Positions 16,578 to 25,832 of a stretch of DNA of 32,095 nucleotides are shown here, piece after piece. Numbering within the stretch: the first letter of the stretch is position 1; every line of letters starts with the position of its first letter. Below the pieces are notes generated by a model that saw only the letters and a list, made by a program, of their open reading frames with translations, did not search any database and was not told the DNA's origin. Source of the DNA: Nitrosomonas sp. (GTDB taxonomy: Bacteria > Pseudomonadota > Gammaproteobacteria > Burkholderiales > Nitrosomonadaceae); NCBI GenBank assembly GCA_024282035.1, contig JAMWZR010000026.1:1-32095 (forward strand), in the 5' to 3' direction. The position numbers and the translations under genes were made by a program.

Positions 16578-17186
16578 TCAACCCAGACTGAATACGACCA
16601 TTTCCGCAGTGATACTGTCCAGATTGGTCATACCGACTAATTCAATGGAGGCAATACCTCCACCAAAAATGACATTCACTCCATTCACTGTTGTAGCCAC
16701 ATCAGTAATTGCACCAACGAGATCCACAACATTATCGACACCAATCTTTTCGGCATCGAAAAAGAAACGGTCTTCACCAATTGTGAAATCGTTGACGTGA
16801 TAAATACCAACGCCGTAAAAACCGAAGGTGTCACTACCCGCACCACCCGTCATCAGATCGTGACCATCACCTGCTCTCAAAATATCGTTGCCGTCACCAC
16901 CACGGAGGATATCTGTACCCGCTTGTCCATCCAGATCATCATCACCGGCATCGCCTTCCAAGGTGTCATTACCATCTCCACCTAATAATCTATCGTTGCC
17001 GGCTTCGCCTTCGATTTCGTCGTGGCCGATCTCGCCGATCAAATCAAAATTATCGGCATCATCGCCAACAATCAAAAAATCATTGGGCCCAAATCCTCCT
17101 GAACCGAGACCTGGAAAAGAAATTCCATCAATACTATCGAATGTTGAAGATCCCTGACTTGGGCGCGTTACTTTTGTTGTAGCCAT
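16578..17186 (-). CDS. Small secreted RTX calcium-binding protein
   Basis: 202-residue protein with seven full RTX nonapeptides (residues 54-121). A GSDTFGF segment follows, then a beta-rich tail with VNDFTIGEDRFFFD, like the C-terminal domain of serralysin-type RTX proteins, ending EMVVFSLG. There is no N-terminal signal peptide, as expected for type I secretion. No enzymatic domain is present, so it may be a structural, binding or carrier protein. A strong Shine-Dalgarno (AGGAGGAG, 17192-17200) precedes the ATG. A promoter with TATAAT and an overlapping Fur-type palindrome lie upstream, so iron repression is likely. It is divergent from the LicD/cytidylyltransferase fusion gene. Confidence 0.88.
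   Translation of the reverse strand: MATTKVTRPSQGSSTFDSIDGISFPGLGSGGFGPNDFLIVGDDADNFDLIGEIGHDEIEGEAGNDRLLGGDGNDTLEGDAGDDDLDGQAGTDILRGGDGNDILRAGDGHDLMTGGAGSDTFGFYGVGIYHVNDFTIGEDRFFFDAEKIGVDNVVDLVGAITDVATTVNGVNVIFGGGIASIELVGMTNLDSITAEMVVFSLG
16824..17027 (-). repeat. RTX nonapeptide repeats of the small protein
   Basis: Seven consecutive nonapeptides plus a partial one: GHDEIEGEA, GNDRLLGGD, GNDTLEGDA, GDDDLDGQA, GTDILRGGD, GNDILRAGD, GHDLMTGGA, then GSDTF. This is a compact calcium-binding beta roll making up a third of the protein. Confidence 0.92.
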
Positions 17187-17257: not shown

Positions 17258-17276
17258 AATGAGAATTATTCCCATT
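17258..17276. promoter_or_regulatory. Fur-box-like operator
   Basis: AATGAGAATTATTCCCATT is a 9-1-9 inverted repeat with a single mismatch, and closely resembles the classical Fur-binding palindrome built on GAGAAT/ATTCTC. It covers the -10 to about +12 region of the promoter reading toward the small RTX gene, a typical position for iron-dependent repression, and also lies 54-72 bases upstream of the divergent fusion gene. Confidence 0.7.
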
Positions 17277-17329: not shown

Positions 17330-18874
17330 ATGACAGAAGAACTGGATTTACTACTGGAGCAAGTACAAGCCTTGATTACAAAGGGACAATATACAAAGGC
17401 AAACGAGATTCTGAAGCCACTCAGAAATCAGCATCCTCTATCCCATCAGGTGGCAAAGCTGTGGTGTTCCGTGGCATTACGAACCAACCAAGCCAATGCA
17501 GTTTTAACCGATGCAGAGAAATTCTATCAACATGCATCGGATGATTTTCGCAAGGCTTACTGGGCGCACACTTGGGGAATGGCCTGTTCGATAACATTGG
17601 ATCTACCTAGTGCCTACATTCATTACATGACAGCCTTGGAACATCTCTTGGCACTGGCCAAATCCGGCAAAATCCCACCTCAGCGCAAACTGCCGGAATT
17701 CGAGCCCATCGACAACAACCTGTTTGTCTCGGGTAAAGCAGAAGAACTGCTCTGGGCAACCTGTGCTGCGCTGGAGCAAGCTGGCGTCCAAGCTTTTCCG
17801 TTTGCCGGTACCTTGCTGGGTCTGGTGCGTCACGAGCGATTGCTGGATTTCGACAAGGATCTAGACATTGCGGTGTGGACAACTTCCCTGCCTACCTGTT
17901 ACGCCGAACTGGAAAAGCTAGGCTGGGTCAGAACAACCATGCACATCGATTACAGCAATTTCCGCGATTACATTCATTCGGAGTTGGGAATCACACTCGA
18001 TGTCTGTGGTTTGCAGGCTAAGGACAAGCAAATACTGGGCGGCTTCTGGTTACCGGATCATCCCGACGAATATCAGCGCGTATCCATTTTTCCACAATTC
18101 GATCTGATCCGGAAACAAACAGCCCATGGCGATGTCTGGTTTCCAAAACAACCCGAGAGAATCCTGACTGCATTCTATGGTGACTGGCGCACGCCAAATC
18201 CGCACTGGGATACCGTGGTCTCGGCATTGAACCAGCAGAAATTCACCTTGTTGATACGCTGCTATGCCTATCACCGGTTGATTCAACGCTGGTTAACCGG
18301 CGACCTGCCCAAGGCCTGGTGCTATGCCCATCAGATCGCATTGAAAGATCCCGACGATGTCCTGGCGCTACGCAGCCGCCAATGGCTCGAACGCGCAATC
18401 ACCCGTCTCAACCGGGACATGCCCGTATGGCCGCGCAATCAGCGGCAGAAACGCGTATATACGCGCATGGTGGCCGATCTGTTTCACGAAGGGCATGTCA
18501 ACTTCCTGCGAGAGGCCCGTGCGCTTGGCACACACTTGACGGTTTGCGTGGTATCGGATGAACGCGTGGTGGAAAACAAGGGAAAACTACCGGTCATGAC
18601 TCAGATGGAGCGTGCTGCCGTGGTTTCGGCTTGCCAGCATGTCGATGCCGTACTCACCGAAACCCCATCGCAAGTAACGCGCACGTATATGCAGCAACAT
18701 GGCTTCGACATTTATACCTTCGCCAGTGCCAGTGATCAGGAACGACAGGACAAACTTGCCTTATGCGCGGATTTGCCGGCGACCATGATTCACGAACTGG
18801 ATTACACACCGGGTATTTCTACATCAGACCTGGTGCAGCGCATTCTTGCCGGTGCGGGTTATAAACCATCATAA
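17330..18874 (+). CDS. Fusion protein: helical repeat + LicD phosphotransferase + cytidylyltransferase
   Basis: 514-residue cytoplasmic protein. Residues ~1-115 are helical and TPR-like. Residues ~157-290 match the LicD/fukutin family: GTLLGLVRHERLLDFDKDLD with acidic D175, D177 and D179, then GITLDVCGLQ (D224) and YGDWRTPNP. Residues ~375-510 match CCT-type cytidylyltransferases: FHEGHVNFLREA carrying the HxGH motif (H386, H389), KLPVMTQMERAA, and the late GISTSDLV. LicD enzymes move phosphocholine or similar groups from CDP-alcohols to glycans or proteins, and the C-terminal domain would make the CDP-alcohol, so one polypeptide may activate and transfer. The true alcohol is unknown (choline, ethanolamine, glycerol). 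An in-frame stop at 17321 fixes the ATG at 17330 as the earliest start; no ribosome binding site is obvious. The end overlaps the convergent RND gene by 6 bases. Confidence 0.82.
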   Translation: MTEELDLLLEQVQALITKGQYTKANEILKPLRNQHPLSHQVAKLWCSVALRTNQANAVLTDAEKFYQHASDDFRKAYWAHTWGMACSITLDLPSAYIHYMTALEHLLALAKSGKIPPQRKLPEFEPIDNNLFVSGKAEELLWATCAALEQAGVQAFPFAGTLLGLVRHERLLDFDKDLDIAVWTTSLPTCYAELEKLGWVRTTMHIDYSNFRDYIHSELGITLDVCGLQAKDKQILGGFWLPDHPDEYQRVSIFPQFDLIRKQTAHGDVWFPKQPERILTAFYGDWRTPNPHWDTVVSALNQQKFTLLIRCYAYHRLIQRWLTGDLPKAWCYAHQIALKDPDDVLALRSRQWLERAITRLNRDMPVWPRNQRQKRVYTRMVADLFHEGHVNFLREARALGTHLTVCVVSDERVVENKGKLPVMTQMERAAVVSACQHVDAVLTETPSQVTRTYMQQHGFDIYTFASASDQERQDKLALCADLPATMIHELDYTPGISTSDLVQRILAGAGYKPS

Positions 18875-21800
18875 TTTCAGCGGCGGCGTAGGATCATCAT
18901 TTTTTGTCGTTGTTTCAGTTACAGCAGGCTCTGGTTGCGGAGAATGCGGCGAATCCTTGCCGCGCTGCGCGATCTTGCCAATTAAAACAAAGAAATACGG
19001 CACGAAGAAGATCGCCAAAAAAGTCGCCGCCAGCATGCCCCCAAAAACGCCCGTTCCGATGGAATGACGGCTGGCTGCACCGGCACCAGACGCCATCACC
19101 AACGGCAACGTTCCCAATATGAACGCCATCGAGGTCATGATGATTGGCCTGAAACGCAAGCGTGCCGCAGTCAGCGCCGCATCCACCAGCGGCATGCCGG
19201 CAGCATGGCGCTGATTGGCGAATTCAACGATCAGGATCGCGTTCTTGGCTGCCAGACCGATCAGCGTCACCAGTCCAATCTGGAAATAAATGTCGTTGGT
19301 CAGTTCGCGCAGCCAGATCGCTACAAAAGCCCCCAGAATGCCGAATGGAATCGCCAAAATCACCGCAAACGGAATAGCCCAGCTCTCGTACAAAGCCGCC
19401 AGCACCAGAAACACCATCAGCAACGCAAACGCAAACACAAAAGCCGACTGCCCGCTGGCCTTGCGCTCCTGCAGTGAAATGCCGCTCCAGTCGATGCTGT
19501 AGCCCTTCGGCACCAACACTTCATTGGCAACCTGCTCCAACGCTGCCAGTGCCTGCCCGGAACTGTACCCAGGCGCCGCGCTGCCCAGAATCAGCGCAGA
19601 ATTGAAACCGTTGAAATGCGTCACCGGGTCCGGACCACTGTTGAACTCCGTTCTCACCACCGCATCCAGCGGTATCATGGCTTGCGACGAACCGCTGCGG
19701 GCACGCACATAAATCTTGCTGATGTCATCCGGATTGGACCGGTATTCTGGTAGCGCCTCGGTCTGCACACGGTAAATCCGTCCGTATTTGACGAAATCAT
19801 TGACGTACAGATTGCCGAAATATGCCTGCATGGTGTCAAACACTTCGGAAATCGGTATGCCGAGCGCCTTGGCACGCTCACGATCAACCGTTGCATACAC
19901 CCGAGGTGCGCTCACGCGAAAATTGGTATTGGCCACCGCGATCGCCGGATGCTCCATTGCCTTCGCCGAGAATTCCTGTGCTACTGCAGCAAACTGGGAA
20001 AAATCCCCGCCACCGGGATCCTGCAGTTGTGCCGAAAAACCACCCGTCGACCCCAGACCACTGATAGACGGCGCGTTGAAAGCCAGAATCAAGGCTTCCG
20101 GAATCTTGGCAAATTCCTGAAAAGCGGCGCCGATCATGGCCTGCACCCGCTCGGCAGGATGCTGACGCTCATCCCAATGATGCAGTGGAATGAACATCGT
20201 CGCCTGATTCGTACCACGCGTGCCGAAAACGAAATTCTGTCCCGCCAGCGTATCCGTGGAATGTACCGAAGACAAAGACTGAAAGTACCCCTCCACCTGC
20301 TCCAGCACTTTGATGGTACGCGCCATCGAAGCACCATCGGGCAATTGAATGACGGTAATGAAATAGCCCTGATCTTCTTCCGGCAAGAAACTGTCGGGTA
20401 TTATCGTGAACAATCCCCACACCATGATCAGCAGGGAGACAAATAAAATGAACACCATTCTGGATCGCTGGATCAAGCCCCCGACCATGCCGACATAGCG
20501 TGCCTGCGTCCAGTCAAAAAATCGGTTGAACACCTGCCAATGACGCTTGGGAGCACCATGTCCAGGTTTCAGCACCAATGCACACAATGCCGGACTCAGA
20601 GTGAGCGCCACGAATCCGGAAATGGCCACCGACAAAGCAATGGTAATGGCAAACTGCTTGTAGAGCTCGCCTGTGATGCCTCCCAGAAACGCAACCGGCA
20701 CAAATACCGCTGCCAATACCAACACGATGGCAATCACCGGCCCGGTCACCTCATCCATGGCCTTTTTGGCTGCATCCTTGGGTGACAAACCATCCTGCGT
20801 CATATGCCGTTCTACATTTTCCACCACGACAATGGCATCATCGACGACGATACCGATGGCCAGCACCATACCGAACAAGGTCAGCGTATTGATCGAAAAC
20901 CCCAGCGCTTCCATACCCGCCAGTGTACCAATCAGCGAAATGGGCACGGCAATGGCCGGAATCAATGTTGCCCGCCAGCTCTGCAAAAAAACGAACACCA
21001 CCAAAATGACCAGTAGCATGGCCTCGGCCAACGTCTTCACCACCTCCCGGATCGACACATCGATGAACTTGGTGGTGTCATACGGAATATCATACGAAAC
21101 ACCGGCCGGGAAGGCCTTGCTCAACTTGTCCATTTCATTGCGCACCAGTCGAACGGTATCCAGCGCATTGGCGCCCGGTGCCAGAAATGTCAGCAGGAAA
21201 GTATTGGGCTTACCATTCCAGCGTCCCTGCAGATCATACGATTGCGCGCCCAGTTCGACTTTCGCCACATCGCGCATGCGCACCATGGAGCCATCCGGAT
21301 AGGCACGGATGATCATGTCCTCGAATTCCTTGACCTCGCTCATGCGACCGTGCGTAATCACCGGTATGGTCAGCTCGGTGCCGTGCGGTGTCGGTTCACG
21401 GCCTATTCGTCCCGCTGGAAAATCGCGGTTCTGTTCGCGAACCACCGCGGCAATTTCGGTTGGTGTCAAGTTCAGTTGCGCCATGCGCACCGGGTCCAGA
21501 ATCAACCGCATGGAATAATTCTGCCCGCCAAAAATGATGGCATCACCCACTCCGGGAAGGCGTTTGACATTATCGAGTATGCGCAGCAAGGCGTAATTCG
21601 ACAGAAATACGTTGTCATGCTTCGGGTCGGTCGAACTGAGCGCCACCACCGCCAGCAAATCCGGTGAAGTCTTTTTCACCGTGATGCCCTGACGCACCAC
21701 TTCCGTCGGCAATTGCGGTTCCGCAAGACGCTGGCGATTCTGTGTCTGCACCTGCGCAATATCGATGTCGGTACCAATCTCGAACGTCAGCTTCATCGTC

Positions 21801-22066
21801 ATGTGGCCATCGTTGGTACTGGTCGATTCGTAATACAACAGGTTATCGATACCCGGCAACTGCACCTCGATCGGACGTGCGACGGCTTCCGCAACTACCT
21901 CGGCACTGGCACCGGGATAATCGGCGTCGATCTGCACCATCGGCGGCGTGATTTGCGGAAATTGCGCAATGGGCAGTTTGTTCAGCGCTACCAGACCGAT
22001 CACGACGATCATGATCGACAGGACCGAAGCAAAAATGGGGCGATCGATGAAAAAATGCGATTTCAT
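18869..22066 (-). CDS. RND multidrug efflux permease (HAE1, AcrB/MexF-like)
   Basis: Inner-membrane proton antiporter of 1065 residues, the pump of a tripartite efflux system. Family features: FFIDRPIFASVLSIMIVV at the N-terminus, the porter-domain segment YPGASAEVVAEAVARPIE, and the TM4 proton-relay aspartates D409/D410 in GIVVDDAIVVVENVE. The C-terminal half repeats the architecture (SWAIPFAVILAIPFGILGAF, ASRHSIGTGVFGGM). Hydrophobic, drug-type substrates are likely rather than metals. Its ATG overlaps the stop of the membrane-fusion gene by 4 bases. The 3' end overlaps the convergent fusion gene by 6 bases, leaving no room for an intergenic terminator. Confidence 0.95.
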   Translation of the reverse strand: MKSHFFIDRPIFASVLSIMIVVIGLVALNKLPIAQFPQITPPMVQIDADYPGASAEVVAEAVARPIEVQLPGIDNLLYYESTSTNDGHMTMKLTFEIGTDIDIAQVQTQNRQRLAEPQLPTEVVRQGITVKKTSPDLLAVVALSSTDPKHDNVFLSNYALLRILDNVKRLPGVGDAIIFGGQNYSMRLILDPVRMAQLNLTPTEIAAVVREQNRDFPAGRIGREPTPHGTELTIPVITHGRMSEVKEFEDMIIRAYPDGSMVRMRDVAKVELGAQSYDLQGRWNGKPNTFLLTFLAPGANALDTVRLVRNEMDKLSKAFPAGVSYDIPYDTTKFIDVSIREVVKTLAEAMLLVILVVFVFLQSWRATLIPAIAVPISLIGTLAGMEALGFSINTLTLFGMVLAIGIVVDDAIVVVENVERHMTQDGLSPKDAAKKAMDEVTGPVIAIVLVLAAVFVPVAFLGGITGELYKQFAITIALSVAISGFVALTLSPALCALVLKPGHGAPKRHWQVFNRFFDWTQARYVGMVGGLIQRSRMVFILFVSLLIMVWGLFTIIPDSFLPEEDQGYFITVIQLPDGASMARTIKVLEQVEGYFQSLSSVHSTDTLAGQNFVFGTRGTNQATMFIPLHHWDERQHPAERVQAMIGAAFQEFAKIPEALILAFNAPSISGLGSTGGFSAQLQDPGGGDFSQFAAVAQEFSAKAMEHPAIAVANTNFRVSAPRVYATVDRERAKALGIPISEVFDTMQAYFGNLYVNDFVKYGRIYRVQTEALPEYRSNPDDISKIYVRARSGSSQAMIPLDAVVRTEFNSGPDPVTHFNGFNSALILGSAAPGYSSGQALAALEQVANEVLVPKGYSIDWSGISLQERKASGQSAFVFAFALLMVFLVLAALYESWAIPFAVILAIPFGILGAFVAIWLRELTNDIYFQIGLVTLIGLAAKNAILIVEFANQRHAAGMPLVDAALTAARLRFRPIIMTSMAFILGTLPLVMASGAGAASRHSIGTGVFGGMLAATFLAIFFVPYFFVLIGKIAQRGKDSPHSPQPEPAVTETTTKNDDPTPPLKL

Positions 22067-23286
22067 GGCGCACCCTGCATATCGGCTTGCTCGGCAGCAG
22101 GAGGCTGCGCAACTTTTTCAGCCTGCGATGGAATGGCCGTCACCTGAACACCGGGCAGAATACGGAAAAATCCCTCGACTACGACCCGTTCCCCGGCCTG
22201 TAAGCCTTCCTCGATGAGCCATTCCTTGCCCCGCCACATACTCGCACGGATCGCGCGCAATTCCGCCTTGTTGTCCTGACCGATGACGAACACGAACGAG
22301 CCGCTGGGTCCCTGCTGCACCGCACGCTGCGGTATCAGAATGGCATCATTGCGGATATAGCCCCGGATGCGAACCTTGACGAACTGCCCGGGGTAAAAAT
22401 ACGATTGTCCCGGTGAAAAACTGCCTTCGGGATTCGGAAACACAAACCGTCCCTGCAATGTACCGGTTTCCGGGCGTAGCGCCACGTCGGCAAAATCCAG
22501 CACGCCTTCCTGCGGATACACACTGCCATCCGTAAATGTCATCACGCCGCGCAACTGAAAAATGTCGGGGCGTTGCACCTTGTGCTCTGCCAGCTCACGG
22601 CGACGCCGCAATAAATAGCTTTCGGGAACGCTGACATTGACATACATCGGATCCAGTTGATCGATGGTCGCCAGCAATGTGGTCTGCGCTGTGATCAGCC
22701 GCCCTTCGTAATACAGGCTGCGACCAATGCGTCCGTTGACCGGTGCGGTAATAACGGTATTGTCCAGATCGAACTTGGCTTTCACCTGCTCGTTCTGCGC
22801 AGCCTCCAGGGCCGCCTTGGCTGCCAGCACTTCGGCTTGCGCATCGTCGACATTCTTTTTACTGACCGCCTGTTGTGCCAGGAGCGGCTTGACGCGCGCC
22901 AGATCCTGCTTGGCCTGGTCCAGCTTGGCCTGCGCCTGTGCCACCTTGGCCTTGCTGCTCAGATAAATCGCCTTGAAAGGTACAGGATCGATCAGATACA
23001 GCCGGTCGCCCTTTTTGATGTTACGTCCCTCGGTAAAATACACTTTCTTGATGATGCCGCTCACCTGGGCGCGAATTTCCACCGGACGGAAAGCCTCGGT
23101 CTGACCGATAAATTCCGGCTCATCCTGTATGGTTTGCAGCGCCACCGTAATGACCTCAACCTGTGGCGCTTGCGGCGCCGGAGGAGGAGTCGACGAACCG
23201 GAACAACCGGCAAGCCACAACACCATTCCCAAACATCCCCCTGTCAGACCTATCCAATTAAGTGGGATTCGTAATATCGAATTCAT
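22063..23286 (-). CDS. RND efflux periplasmic adaptor (membrane fusion protein)
   Basis: 407-residue lipoprotein linking the RND pump to the outer-membrane channel. The N-terminus is a lipoprotein signal with lipobox LAGC (C28), followed by a Pro-rich linker. The lipoyl halves are visible as RAQVSGIIKKVYFTEGRNIK and VITAPVNGRIGRSLYYEG around an alpha-helical hairpin (~residues 110-175, rich in AQAKLDQAKQDL). The beta-barrel and membrane-proximal domains follow. GAGGT is found 10 bases before the ATG. It is translationally coupled to the pump gene downstream. Confidence 0.93.
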   Translation of the reverse strand: MNSILRIPLNWIGLTGGCLGMVLWLAGCSGSSTPPPAPQAPQVEVITVALQTIQDEPEFIGQTEAFRPVEIRAQVSGIIKKVYFTEGRNIKKGDRLYLIDPVPFKAIYLSSKAKVAQAQAKLDQAKQDLARVKPLLAQQAVSKKNVDDAQAEVLAAKAALEAAQNEQVKAKFDLDNTVITAPVNGRIGRSLYYEGRLITAQTTLLATIDQLDPMYVNVSVPESYLLRRRRELAEHKVQRPDIFQLRGVMTFTDGSVYPQEGVLDFADVALRPETGTLQGRFVFPNPEGSFSPGQSYFYPGQFVKVRIRGYIRNDAILIPQRAVQQGPSGSFVFVIGQDNKAELRAIRASMWRGKEWLIEEGLQAGERVVVEGFFRILPGVQVTAIPSQAEKVAQPPAAEQADMQGAP

Positions 23287-23348
23287 CAGACCCTATACCT
23301 CTTTTCTATTGAATCAGCACACAGCTTTCCTGCTCGTCCATGTACGGA

Positions 23349-23900
23349 TCAGCAGGCATGCTTGCTCACCCAGGCTACATAGCGCCCCATCCAGTTCTGC
23401 AGAAAATTGCGACTGGTCTCACCGATATTCCCTTCGGCATCAAACAATCCATCCCGCATCTGGATGAAAGCTTCGGGCTGCCCCAGTGTCGGCACATCGA
23501 GATAAGCCAGAATATTGCGCAGATGTTGCTGCGCCATGGCCGTGCCCATCGCACCGATCGACACCCCCAGTACGCCCGCAGGCTTACCAGCCCAGACGCT
23601 TTGCCCATAGGGCCGGGAAGCATGATCGATGGCGTTCTTCAATAGACCCGGTATGGAGCGATTGTATTCCGGTGTCACAAACAGCAAACCTTGCGCAGAA
23701 ACGATGTCCTGCTTGAGTCGTTTGACCGATTCGATTTGTGCATTGTCGTCATCCTGATCGTACAGCGGCAAGTCATCGATGCGCACAGGATGAAATGAAA
23801 ATTCGGCTGGAGCGAGTTTGGCCAGCGCCGTAGCCAACTTGCGATTCAACGAATCCTTGCGCAAGCTGCCCACCACTACTGCGATTCGATACTGATTCAA
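23349..23900 (-). CDS. NAD(P)H-dependent FMN reductase (ChrR/YieF-like flavodoxin fold)
   Basis: Soluble flavoprotein of about 183 residues, predicted to reduce FMN, quinones, nitroaromatics or chromate with NAD(P)H. Signature: VVVGSLRKDSLNRKLA (phosphate-binding loop), LLFVTPEYNRSIPGLLKNAI and KPAGVLGVSIGAMGTAMAQQ. I favour the TTG at 23898-23900 because GGAGG sits 5 bases before it; the ATG at 23912 (4 residues longer) contains that same GGAGG inside its coding sequence and has no site of its own. It stands between the outer-membrane factor and the adaptor of the efflux operon, 62 bases before the latter. This suggests a link to redox-active substrates of the pump. Confidence 0.87.
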   Translation of the reverse strand: MNQYRIAVVVGSLRKDSLNRKLATALAKLAPAEFSFHPVRIDDLPLYDQDDDNAQIESVKRLKQDIVSAQGLLFVTPEYNRSIPGLLKNAIDHASRPYGQSVWAGKPAGVLGVSIGAMGTAMAQQHLRNILAYLDVPTLGQPEAFIQMRDGLFDAEGNIGETSRNFLQNWMGRYVAWVSKHAC

Positions 23901-23947
23901 AGTAACCTCCAATAAATTAATGGGTCATTGACATCCGGAGAAAGGCC

Positions 23948-23976
23948 ATTCCAGTTGACAGTCATTGCGTAGTCAA
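23948..23976 (-). promoter_or_regulatory. Candidate internal promoter before the FMN reductase
   Basis: On the minus strand TTGACT (23971-23976), a 17-base spacer and TGGAAT (23948-23953). The interval also carries inverted hexamers GTTGAC and GTCAAC (23954-23959, 23972-23977). It would let the reductase, adaptor and pump be expressed apart from the outer-membrane factor. The -10 matches only four of six bases. Confidence 0.35.
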
Positions 23977-24018
23977 CCTACCCGATACCCAACTTTCGCA
24001 CCGATCGTGATACGAGGC

Positions 24019-25452
24019 TTAGAGTGCCCATCCGCCCCCCAGCGCCTTGTAGAGCTGCACGACCGACACCAGATGTAAACGGTGTGTAGCGCTCAGCGCC
24101 GATTCCGCATCGAACAGGGTGCGTTTGGCCAGCAATACGTCAACATAACTGGTAACACCCCCTTCATAACGCAGATTGGCCACCTGCAGCGCCGATTGCA
24201 ATGCAGCAACCTGCTGTTGTTGCGCCTTGAACTGATCGTCTGCTGTGCGAATGGCAATCAGCGCATCCTCGACTTCCCTGAAAGCCTGCAGGATGATCTG
24301 TTCATATTGCGCCAGTGCCTGCCTGGCCTGAGCTTCTGCTGCGCGCTGCTCGAAACCAAGGCTTTTGGCATTCAGCAACGGTCCGGCCAATCCCAGTCCA
24401 CCCACACCGAACTCGCTACCCGAAGTCAACAAATTGGACAAGGCCGGGCTGGCCACACCGAGAAAACCAGTCAGCGTCAGCTTGGGAAAACGCGACGCCT
24501 TGGCCACACCGATCCGGGCTGTCGCTGCAGCCAGATTTTGTTCTGCCTGCAGGATATCCGGACGGCGTTGCAGTAACTCGGATGGCAATCCTGCCGGCAC
24601 TTCCAGCAACGTCAATTGCCCCGTCAGCGCATGTCCACGTGCAATTGGCAAAGGTTTCCTTCCCAGCAGCACACTGATTTCATTTTCCTTCTGCACTACC
24701 CTGCGCTCCAACTCAGCCACACGGGCAGAAGCATTGGCACGCTCGGCTGCGAACTGATCAAAGTCCAGTCTGGAGATCATGCCACCCTGGAGCTGGGCCT
24801 GTGCAATGTTGACCGATTCCTGCCAGGATGCCAGGGCGCGATGCGCAATATCCCGCTGACTATCCAGTTGCAGCAAATCGAAATAGGCTTGCGCGACCGC
24901 ACTGATCAAGGTCAGGACTATCGCGCGGCGATTTTCCTCACGCGCCAGCAAATCCGCACGTGCTGCTTCATTGGAGCGGCGTATCCTGCCCCAGATATCG
25001 ATTTCCCAGTTCAGGGTAGTCTGCCCGTAATAATTGAATGGCGTGGCAAACCCGGGACGCAGGAACCCACCCAGCGTTCCCATCGCCGGTGCATTGGCAT
25101 TGACATCCATGTTGGGCAGAAAATCCATCAGGGTGACATTCAGCCTCGCCTGCAGCTCTTCCACACTGGCCACGGCCTGCTGCAAATCCTTGTTTTCTTT
25201 CAGGGCTAGATGAATCAACTGCTGCAGCGTTTCATCGCGAAGCAATTGCCACCAGGGCAGATTGGCTATCGATTGTCCCTCGGTATCCGCCATGCGAAAA
25301 CGCTCGGCCATGTCGATTTCTGGCCGCCGGTAATCAGGTCCCAGAGCACAGCCCGTAAGCAGCAAGCCCACCAGACACCAGCCTGCTAGACGCCATGCGC
25401 TGTTCGTCACGGCGATCGGTTCCCGATCTGAAAAATGACTCAATCCTTTCAT
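24019..25452 (-). CDS. Outer-membrane efflux factor (NodT/OprM family lipoprotein)
   Basis: TolC-type channel subunit exporting substrates from the RND pump. It has a lipoprotein signal with LLLTGC, then the family hallmark ALGPDYRRPEIDMAERF, followed by two outer-membrane-efflux repeats with long helices (NKDLQQAVASVEELQARLNV; LRYEGGVTSYVDVLLAKRTL). The open frame reaches 25590, but the first 46 residues do not look like family sequence. I prefer the ATG at 25450-25452 (~477 residues), and a GTG at 25408-25410 would give a cleaner 20-residue signal. It appears to be the first gene of the efflux operon; OprM-family genes more often come last. An inverted repeat lies 33 bases upstream. Confidence 0.9.
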   Translation of the reverse strand: MKGLSHFSDREPIAVTNSAWRLAGWCLVGLLLTGCALGPDYRRPEIDMAERFRMADTEGQSIANLPWWQLLRDETLQQLIHLALKENKDLQQAVASVEELQARLNVTLMDFLPNMDVNANAPAMGTLGGFLRPGFATPFNYYGQTTLNWEIDIWGRIRRSNEAARADLLAREENRRAIVLTLISAVAQAYFDLLQLDSQRDIAHRALASWQESVNIAQAQLQGGMISRLDFDQFAAERANASARVAELERRVVQKENEISVLLGRKPLPIARGHALTGQLTLLEVPAGLPSELLQRRPDILQAEQNLAAATARIGVAKASRFPKLTLTGFLGVASPALSNLLTSGSEFGVGGLGLAGPLLNAKSLGFEQRAAEAQARQALAQYEQIILQAFREVEDALIAIRTADDQFKAQQQQVAALQSALQVANLRYEGGVTSYVDVLLAKRTLFDAESALSATHRLHLVSVVQLYKALGGGWAL

Positions 25453-25832
25453 CACAAACTTGGCAGTTACATTAAACACAAACAGATCAATAAGATTGAT
25501 CGACCCCTTACACTCGTTCCCAAGACAACCGGCAAGACATGAATATCTCAACGACACGTCTTGCAACACTACCCGGCAAATTTTACCCATCTGAACTATA
25601 CCTTTGTCTGTAGGACATTGCTGATGTTAATTGTTTCCCCTTTCATGATAGCGTTGCCACTCGGCTGATTCCTTTCACATTACTACCTGACATGTCGAGC
25701 GCAACGATGAATGAAGTGAATTGTTATCTGACAGTTGAATACCCCGACACGGGATTTCGGCGTGCTGTCTCTTCGCAAAACCCGGATTCCGGCATCAACA
25801 GATTGCTTTCCGTTGCCCGATAATCGAACGGA
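25453..25832. other. Divergent regulatory region between efflux operon and signalling genes
   Basis: About 380 bases without a convincing gene. It contains the palindrome at 25485-25501 and must hold promoters for both the efflux operon (minus) and the response regulator (plus). No clear sigma-70 pair was found on either strand. Confidence 0.5.
25485..25501. promoter_or_regulatory. Palindromic operator candidate upstream of efflux operon
   Basis: GATCAAT-AAG-ATTGATC, a perfect 7-bp inverted repeat with a 3-base centre, 33-49 bases before the ATG of the outer-membrane factor. It also fits a T-N11-A pattern. The position is right for a repressor or activator site controlling the efflux genes; no TetR, MarR or LysR gene is in the window. 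Confidence 0.42.

What the first reader, a model, noticed from the sequence alone, without database searches (positions are those of the whole stretch)
17330..18874. LicD-type transferase fused to a CCT-type cytidylyltransferase on one polypeptide
Sequence shows LicD motifs (GTLLGLVRHE, DFDKDLDIAV) followed by cytidylyltransferase motifs (HEGH, GISTSD) in one 514-residue frame, with a helical-repeat N-terminus. In known phosphocholine pathways (Haemophilus, Streptococcus lic) the activating and transferring enzymes are separate, and LicC belongs to a different fold. A one-protein activate-and-transfer enzyme for phosphocholine, phosphoethanolamine or glycerol phosphate would be notable. The substrate is inference, and I cannot tell how common the fusion is.
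Basis: partly seen in the sequence, partly recalled or inferred. Interest (0 to 1): 0.72.

Follow-up and report, generated by a model that had tools for sequence, protein, structure and literature searches.

The report
LicD–cytidylyltransferase fusion paired with RTX protein
A protein of the ammonia-oxidising bacterium Nitrosomonas looks able both to activate a small phosphate-bearing alcohol and to attach it to a target; its gene is regularly paired with a gene for a small calcium-binding, probably exported protein under a shared iron-type switch, which suggests that it decorates that protein or the surface that holds it.

Summary
ORF 17330-18874 (+) encodes 514 aa: TPR-like helices, a divergent LicD domain, more helices and a PF01467 cytidylyltransferase domain. 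Key residues of both domains are invariant in 61 of 61 aligned sequences; one usual Arg is Tyr. It is a Nitrosomonas protein (24 of 31 same-genus genomes) and recurs in one other genus (12 of 48).

A divergent ~200-aa RTX gene lies upstream in 61 of 65 loci, the other four being cut by contig ends. Their shared promoter holds a Fur-box-like palindrome in 55 of 58 cases against 33 of 288 other promoters. The RTX family is absent from 7 of 7 genomes without the fusion. Unfused LicD relatives often have a cytidylyltransferase gene alongside (8 of 10) and flagellar or large secreted-protein genes near (6 of 10).

Best reading: an iron-responsive enzyme that makes a CDP-alcohol and transfers the phospho-alcohol to the RTX partner before type I export. 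Activities, substrate and acceptor are inferred; phosphocholine is not favoured. ISPD-LicD fusions are already in print: a new variant of a known kind.

The parts
17330..18874 (+). TPR-like / LicD / helical / CTP_transf_like fusion protein, 514 aa
17336..17662 (+). TPR-like helices, residues 3-111
   Evidence: model helices; Pfam TPR families in up to 9 of 14 homologues, none over E 0.01 in the window protein; TPR part of OGT is the best PDB profile match
17720..18229 (+). LicD/fukutin-type domain, residues 131-300; Asp 175/177/179 at 17852-17866, Asp224 at 17999-18001
18242..18412 (+). second helical segment, residues 305-361, between the two catalytic domains
18443..18853 (+). PF01467 cytidylyltransferase-type domain, residues 372-508; HEGH at 18485-18496, GISTSD at 18812-18829
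16578..17186 (-). divergent partner: 202-aa RTX (HemolysinCabind) calcium-binding repeat protein
   Evidence: Pfam 1.4e-15; model pLDDT 92.4, RTX-type beta-roll proteins as best fold matches; adjacent in 61 of 65 loci, the other 4 cut by a contig end
17187..17329 (.). shared divergent promoter region, 143 bp
17260..17274 (.). Fur-box-like 7-1-7 palindrome TGAGAATTATTCCCA, 13 of 14 to TGAKAATNATTMTCA; only site with 12 or more of 14 in the window
   Evidence: pattern recalled and set after the window was seen

Best explanation
A cytoplasmic bifunctional enzyme in an iron-responsive two-gene module. Its C-terminal domain condenses CTP with a small phosphorylated alcohol (glycerol phosphate or another polyol phosphate is likeliest) to give a CDP-alcohol; its LicD domain passes the phospho-alcohol from the CDP donor to an acceptor, as FKTN and FKRP do with CDP-ribitol. 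The N-terminal TPR-like helices bind the acceptor, most likely the still unfolded RTX protein encoded next door (or a sugar on it), before it leaves by a PrtD-type type I secretion system. Shown here: domain architecture, fold of the C-terminal domain, conserved residues, RTX pairing, Fur-box-like promoter, co-occurrence with PrtD in the genomes tested. Inferred: both activities, substrate, acceptor, timing, secretion of the RTX protein and Fur control.
For: Motif residues of both domains kept in 61 of 61. Divergent RTX gene in 61 of 65 loci, the other four cut by contig ends; next-out neighbours are 30 kinds in 58 and 29 kinds in 63 cases. RTX family in 23 of 24 same-genus genomes with the fusion (the miss, G015, has the fusion at a contig end) and in 0 of 7 without. 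PrtD over cut-off in 13 of 13 with and 0 of 3 without, 16 of the 31 same-genus genomes being searched. Fur-box-like site in 55 of 58 module promoters against 33 of 288 others of the same loci; 18 of those 33 lie between a TonB-dependent receptor cluster and a cluster with a weak FEA1-related match. Of ten non-module LicD loci followed up, 8 have a cytidylyltransferase gene next to LicD and 6 lie beside or among flagellin, flagellar or large secreted-protein genes, several of these named by reading only.
Against: No activity shown. Tyr492 replaces the Arg of RTEGIST in 61 of 61, though the Fom1 domain 5x3d reads the same YTPGIS. In the second genus no RTX-like neighbour was seen, by a simple repeat pattern, in 12 of 13 loci. 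RTX homologues without a fusion beside them exist (L204; halves L205 and L207). Absence of module and RTX may reflect one or two losses in one clade. The Fur pattern was chosen after the window was seen, and the loci are related by descent. Four of the ten unfused loci have no exported-protein gene near. Contact between the helices and the RTX protein was not modelled.
Confidence: 0.4

Rival explanations
1. Same two-step enzyme, but the acceptor is a surface polysaccharide or LPS; the phosphodiester groups give the secreted RTX protein an anchoring site, and the two genes are paired because their products work together outside the cell.
For: LicD genes with PF01467 genes sit in polysaccharide-type clusters (G377 L182; G997 L195; Paracoccus plasmid with LicD-like gene and tagD about 5 kb apart among capsule genes). 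Bacterial relatives of FKTN/FKRP are described as acting in teichoic acid and capsule synthesis (PMC4873967, passages).
Against: Apart from the RTX gene no neighbour cluster is in more than 25 of 65 loci, and none of the 18 clusters named by one representative each is a glycan gene (the many single neighbours were not named). The TPR-like part and the flagellin settings fit a protein acceptor better.
Confidence: 0.3
2. The C-terminal domain makes a nucleotide-activated compound other than a CDP-alcohol (for example an ADP-activated sugar, as HldE does), and the LicD domain uses that.
For: The best NCBIfam score of the window protein is rfaE_dom_II, 58-62 bits, above g3p_cytidyltrns, 40-43 bits; both far below cut-off.
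Against: The best PDB match by sequence is ECT (86 bits); PF01467 genes beside unfused LicD genes read as TagD-like.
Confidence: 0.12
3. Phosphocholine or phosphoethanolamine activation and transfer.
For: Best PDB matches are ECT and CCT; Mf1-type LicD match below its cut-off.
Against: The position of the recalled choline-cage Trp varies; neighbours of unfused relatives read as TagD-like or CDP-ribitol-synthase-like.
Confidence: 0.1
4. One domain is catalytically dead and serves only to bind nucleotide or CDP-alcohol.
For: Arg-to-Tyr change, and absence in Nitrosomonas of the GxxWxGS-like stretch that the second genus and TagD-like proteins keep.
Against: HxGH, Lys417, Arg428, Ser497 and four Asp of the LicD part are invariant in 61 sequences; Fom1 has the same Tyr.
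Confidence: 0.08

Closest known systems
FKTN/FKRP with ISPD (CDP-ribitol synthase), and bacterial ISPD-LicD fusions mentioned in PMC4873967 (passages)
   Same: LicD-type transferase coupled to a cytidylyltransferase that makes its donor; clustered acidic residues; in animals the acceptor is a glycan on a surface protein
   Different: ISPD belongs to the IspD-type family (family recalled), here the cytidylyltransferase is PF01467; TPR-like part; RTX partner; bacterial setting
LicC/LicD of the lic pathways
   Same: CDP-alcohol donor made, then used by LicD
   Different: separate proteins; LicC is PF12804; the substrate is phosphocholine
Fom1 (cytidylyltransferase domain on one chain with PEP mutase)
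   Same: PF01467 domain on a bifunctional chain; same M-x-A-D-L-x-H and YTPGIS stretches
   Different: other partner domain; phosphonate substrate; PEP mutase over cut-off in 0 of 25 genomes searched here
HlyC-HlyA type activation of RTX toxins (recalled, from no call)
   Same: cytoplasmic enzyme paired with an RTX protein that leaves by type I secretion
   Different: HlyC attaches acyl chains; relation not tested
Neisseria FrpA/FrpC iron-regulated RTX proteins (recalled, from no call)
   Same: RTX proteins under iron control
   Different: larger proteins; no LicD partner recalled

Membership tests
LicD family (PF04991) | score over the curated Pfam cut-off | tested here: inconclusive
   this protein 13.9 of 22.6 bits; 3 of 20 fusion-bearing genomes over cut-off when stretches of the frame are summed, 17 without a match; 3 of 14 homologues match at E 0.01
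LicD family (PF04991) | hG-type motif plus clustered Asp and a further Asp, as Asp360/362/364 and Asp416 of FKRP | tested here: met
   G160 T161, D175, D177, D179, D224 in 61 of 61; FKRP residues from PMC6965139 passages; pairing of D224 with Asp416 is by reading
LicD family (PF04991) | profile similarity over the whole domain to accepted LicDs | tested here: met
   hhalign probability 99.1, 153 columns, against 4 LicDs of which 3 pass the Pfam cut-off
LicD family (PF04991) | NTase-type fold of FKRP | tested here: inconclusive
   the fold lists were filled by the C-terminal domain; no model of the LicD part alone
LicD family (PF04991) | transfer of a phospho-alcohol from a CDP donor | not testable with these tools
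   needs an assay
CCT/ECT/GCT cytidylyltransferases (PF01467) | fold and HxGH | tested here: met
CCT/ECT/GCT cytidylyltransferases (PF01467) | Arg-Thr of RTEGIST | tested here: not met
   Tyr492 in 61 of 61; Lys or Arg in 10 of 11 second-genus sequences that reach this point; Fom1 also has Tyr
glycerol-3-phosphate cytidylyltransferase (TIGR01518) | curated score | tested here: not met
   40-43 bits against 165.4
HldE adenylyltransferase domain (TIGR02199) | curated score | tested here: not met
   58-62 bits against 181.5
LicC (PF12804) | MobA-like NTP transferase domain | tested here: not met
   no such match at E 0.1; PF01467 found
Fur regulon | Fur box in the promoter, bound by Fur | tested here: inconclusive
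   site in 55 of 58 against 33 of 288; binding not tested
type I secreted RTX proteins | RTX repeats, exporter present in the genome, secretion | tested here: inconclusive
   repeats found; PrtD over cut-off in 13 of 13 fusion-bearing genomes searched; secretion not testable here

The most novel reading that the evidence does not exclude
A new class of protein modification: bacteria attach phospho-alcohols (glycerol, ribitol or similar) to proteins that leave the cell unfolded, RTX proteins by type I secretion and flagellins by the flagellar route, using helix-guided LicD enzymes with a private CDP-alcohol synthase; Nitrosomonas has fused both steps and put them under iron control.
Probability: 0.3. 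Interest if true: 0.82.

Novelty: new variant of a known kind. Interest (0 to 1): 0.58.

Why it matters
If true, it gives a compact one-protein version of the ISPD/fukutin kind of chemistry, whose failure causes muscular dystrophy in people (PMC4873967, PMC6965139, passages), in an environmental bacterium where it can be tested. It would also tie LicD enzymes to exported proteins (RTX, flagellin) rather than only to glycans, and point to an iron-linked secretion module of ammonia oxidisers for which I found no paper in the held library.

Tried and rejected
Phosphonate substrate: suggested by the Fom1-like motifs. PEP mutase over cut-off in 0 of 25 genomes, 16 of them same-genus; 9 of 25 have weaker matches below cut-off. 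Put aside, not excluded.

Operon with the AcrAB-type efflux genes downstream: rejected; that gene is convergent and overlaps the last 6 bases, and downstream neighbours differ between loci.

Glycan cluster around the gene: none of the 18 neighbour clusters that I named by one representative each is a glycan gene; single neighbours were not named.

RTX partner in the second genus: not seen in 12 of 13 loci by a simple repeat pattern. A SapC-like gene follows in 4 of 13, one of them checked by Pfam.

Wider sampling: profile A1 over 398 phylum and 369 class genomes gave full-length matches only in Nitrosomonas and G181 (the match table was cut at its weak end, and more divergent fusions could be missed). 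A4 over 262 class genomes at 1e-12 matched only the window's genome. The two patterns reach close relatives only. Phage and plasmid records hold no match over 80% of the protein.

LicD loci outside the ten: weaker A4 hits in G385, G305, G139 and a second one in G221 were fetched too; no PF01467 gene showed beside them in an ORF list that drops overlapping frames, and that list also missed the one in L120, found later. Other weaker hits were not fetched.

Papers: no paper held LicD with tetratricopeptide and flagellin, LicD family with flagellin, or LicD with RTX. The one with Nitrosomonas and LicD concerns sphingolipids. Searches for LicD with cytidylyltransferase listed 5 papers in two calls, of which I opened PMC6697681 and PMC4873967. 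The library holds open-licence papers only.

Full report

CONSERVATION. In 61 aligned sequences, 55-90% identical to this one, G160, T161, D175, D177, D179, D224, D383, H386, H389, K417, K419, R428, Y492, I496, S497 and R504 never vary. In FKRP, Asp360, 362, 364 and 416 matter for activity (PMC6965139, passages); D175/177/179 match the first three by motif and D224 the last by reading. One departure from the recalled cytidylyltransferase motifs is Tyr492 for Arg. The Fom1 domain, whose entry title says HEP-CMP-bound (5x3d), has the same YTPGIS and the same M-x-A-D-L-x-H. A second departure is the loss of the GxxWxGS-like stretch that the second genus keeps.

WHO HAS IT. The 63 loci are labelled Nitrosomonas, Nitrosomonadaceae, or proteobacterial, beta- or gammaproteobacterial bins. 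In whole genomes, 19 of 24 other same-genus genomes have it; of six more, four have it and two do not; with the window's own genome that is 24 of 31. Two of the 24 (G004, G015) show only a fragment at a contig end. The own genome has two copies, 67% identical. A second genus of the same class (g65, unnamed) has a match at E 1e-20 in 13 of 48 genomes; 11 of those 13 carry a whole cytidylyltransferase domain, one (L146) a shortened one, and one (L150) none. Samples of 398 phylum and 369 class genomes gave no other full-length match.

THE PARTNER. Clustering of neighbours in 65 loci (window, L021, L036-L098) shows one constant neighbour: a ~200-aa RTX protein, here 16578-17186 (-), in 61 of 65. 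In the four others (L062, L076, L082, L095) the fusion starts within 232 bases of the contig end. All 62 pairs are divergent, median gap 170 bp; one (L084) has an ORF between and a gap of 1040 bp. Next-out neighbours are 30 kinds among 58 and 29 kinds among 63 cases, so the pair keeps together while the rest changes; L071 holds two copies of it. These loci overlap with the G genomes and are related by descent, so they are not independent events. RTX-family members were found in 18 of the 19 fusion-bearing genomes (the miss is G015), in 4 of 4 additional ones, where they are adjacent and divergent, and in the own genome; and in none of the 7 without the fusion. Of these seven, G012 shows only generic RTX repeats at 2e-10, and G866 and G907 were searched down to 1e-12. 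Against a strict bond: RTX copies without the fusion beside them in G004 (L204) and, split over two contigs, in G010 (L205, L207), genomes that also have the module. A PrtD-type exporter over the NCBIfam cut-off is in 13 of 13 same-genus genomes with the fusion and 0 of 3 without, 16 of 31 being searched; G012 has a match below cut-off. In the own genome the exporter gene is followed by HlyD-like and TolC-like genes, by reading (L209).

THE PROMOTER. The 143-bp gap holds TGAGAATTATTCCCA at 17260. Matches of at least 12 of 14 to TGAKAATNATTMTCA occur in 56 of 61 module gaps with margins, against 1.2% of dinucleotide shuffles. For gaps of 40-450 bp they occur in 55 of 58 against 33 of 288 other promoter-bearing gaps of the same loci. 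Of those 33, 18 lie between clusters 4 and 2; the representative of cluster 4 is a TonB-dependent siderophore receptor, and that of cluster 2 has a weak match to FEA1-related lipoprotein (36.5 bits, cut-off 250). It is the only such site in the 32-kb window. The pattern was set from a recalled Fur box after the window was seen, and homologous gaps share descent. In Nitrosomonas europaea a Fur box that works in an E. coli titration test is reported (PMC3050691, passages).

RELATIVES THAT ARE NOT FUSED. I followed all A4 hits at E 1e-12 outside Nitrosomonas and g65 (G121, G137, G269, G377, G425, G997, G1027, G1068), plus G797 of g65 and an Octadecabacter arcticus plasmid: ten loci. A cytidylyltransferase gene is next to LicD in eight: IspD type by Pfam in G121, G137, G269 and G425 and by reading in G1068; PF01467 type in G377 and G997 by profile and in Octadecabacter by Pfam. 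None was seen in G1027 and G797. In G269 and G425 it is IspD joined to a short-chain dehydrogenase, the layout that I recall for the CDP-ribitol synthase Acs1/Bcs1. Six of ten have exported structural proteins or flagellar genes near: G269 (flagellins next to it, by reading), G425 (among flagellar genes, by reading), G1027 (divergent from a fliC-like gene, by reading), Octadecabacter (flagellin, then PF01467, then LicD overlapping it by 4 bp; flagellin by Pfam), G137 (after the IspD-type gene, a protein over 2373 aa with DUF4347 and Calx-beta), and G797 (near two homologous proteins of 1193 and 1915 aa, the longer with RTX-like repeats). Two are in polysaccharide-type surroundings (G377, G997) and two in neither (G121, G1068). 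Pfam TPR matches were found in G121 and G137 and not in G269, G425 and Octadecabacter; the others were not scanned on their own, except G797, which was one of the 14 members. In G221, a weaker hit, a PF01467-like gene and LicD overlap by 4 bp.

MECHANISM. The layout fits make-and-use: CTP plus an alcohol phosphate at the C-terminal domain, transfer by the LicD domain, guidance by the helices. The partner data favour the RTX protein, or a glycan on it, as acceptor; flagellin and RTX proteins both leave the cytoplasm unfolded (recalled), which would suit a cytoplasmic enzyme. Ser13, Ser29 and Tyr124 of the RTX protein never vary in 55 sequences, but conservation alone does not mark an attachment site, and the orphan copies were not compared residue by residue. 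The alcohol is open. Choline is not favoured (position 447 varies; cage residue recalled), a phosphonate is not favoured, and a polyol phosphate is favoured only from the neighbours of relatives.

KNOWN OR NEW. PMC4873967 (passages) already says that some bacterial genomes code for fusions of ISPD with LicD-domain proteins. This one uses another cytidylyltransferase family, has TPR-like helices, and comes with an RTX partner and an iron-type promoter. I found no paper in the held library that joins LicD with RTX or flagellin. New variant of a known kind; the protein-modification reading would be more than that if shown.

Noticed in passing
L191:8749-10374: In same-genus genome G007 another LicD-containing protein (541 aa, Pfam LicD over cut-off) seems, by reading, to be joined to a methyltransferase in a glycan-type cluster.
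   Followed up: partly
L204:2398-2997; L205:1-390 and L207:3721-4068: RTX-family copies without the fusion beside them; in L204 and L207 the next gene encodes similar proteins starting with a signal-like stretch.
   Followed up: partly
L150 (G797): TPR-LicD protein without cytidylyltransferase, in a run with a glycosyltransferase-like gene and an epimerase-family gene, between two large homologous proteins; a 2OG-Fe(II) oxygenase-family gene lies near.
   Followed up: partly
L036-L098, clusters 2 and 4: TonB-receptor-like and weakly FEA1-like genes occur in 23 and 25 of 65 loci, with their own Fur-box-like site between them in 18 gaps.
   Followed up: partly
L119:10545-11291: SapC-family gene directly after the fusion; SapC-like cluster in 4 of 13 loci of the second genus.
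   Followed up: no
window 18869-25590: AcrB-type permease, MexA/AcrA-type adaptor and NodT-type outer-membrane genes on the minus strand: an RND efflux set beside the module.
   Followed up: no
G231:C33:27980-28393: A PF01467-like match lies in a 973-residue open frame, possibly another fusion of this domain.
   Followed up: no
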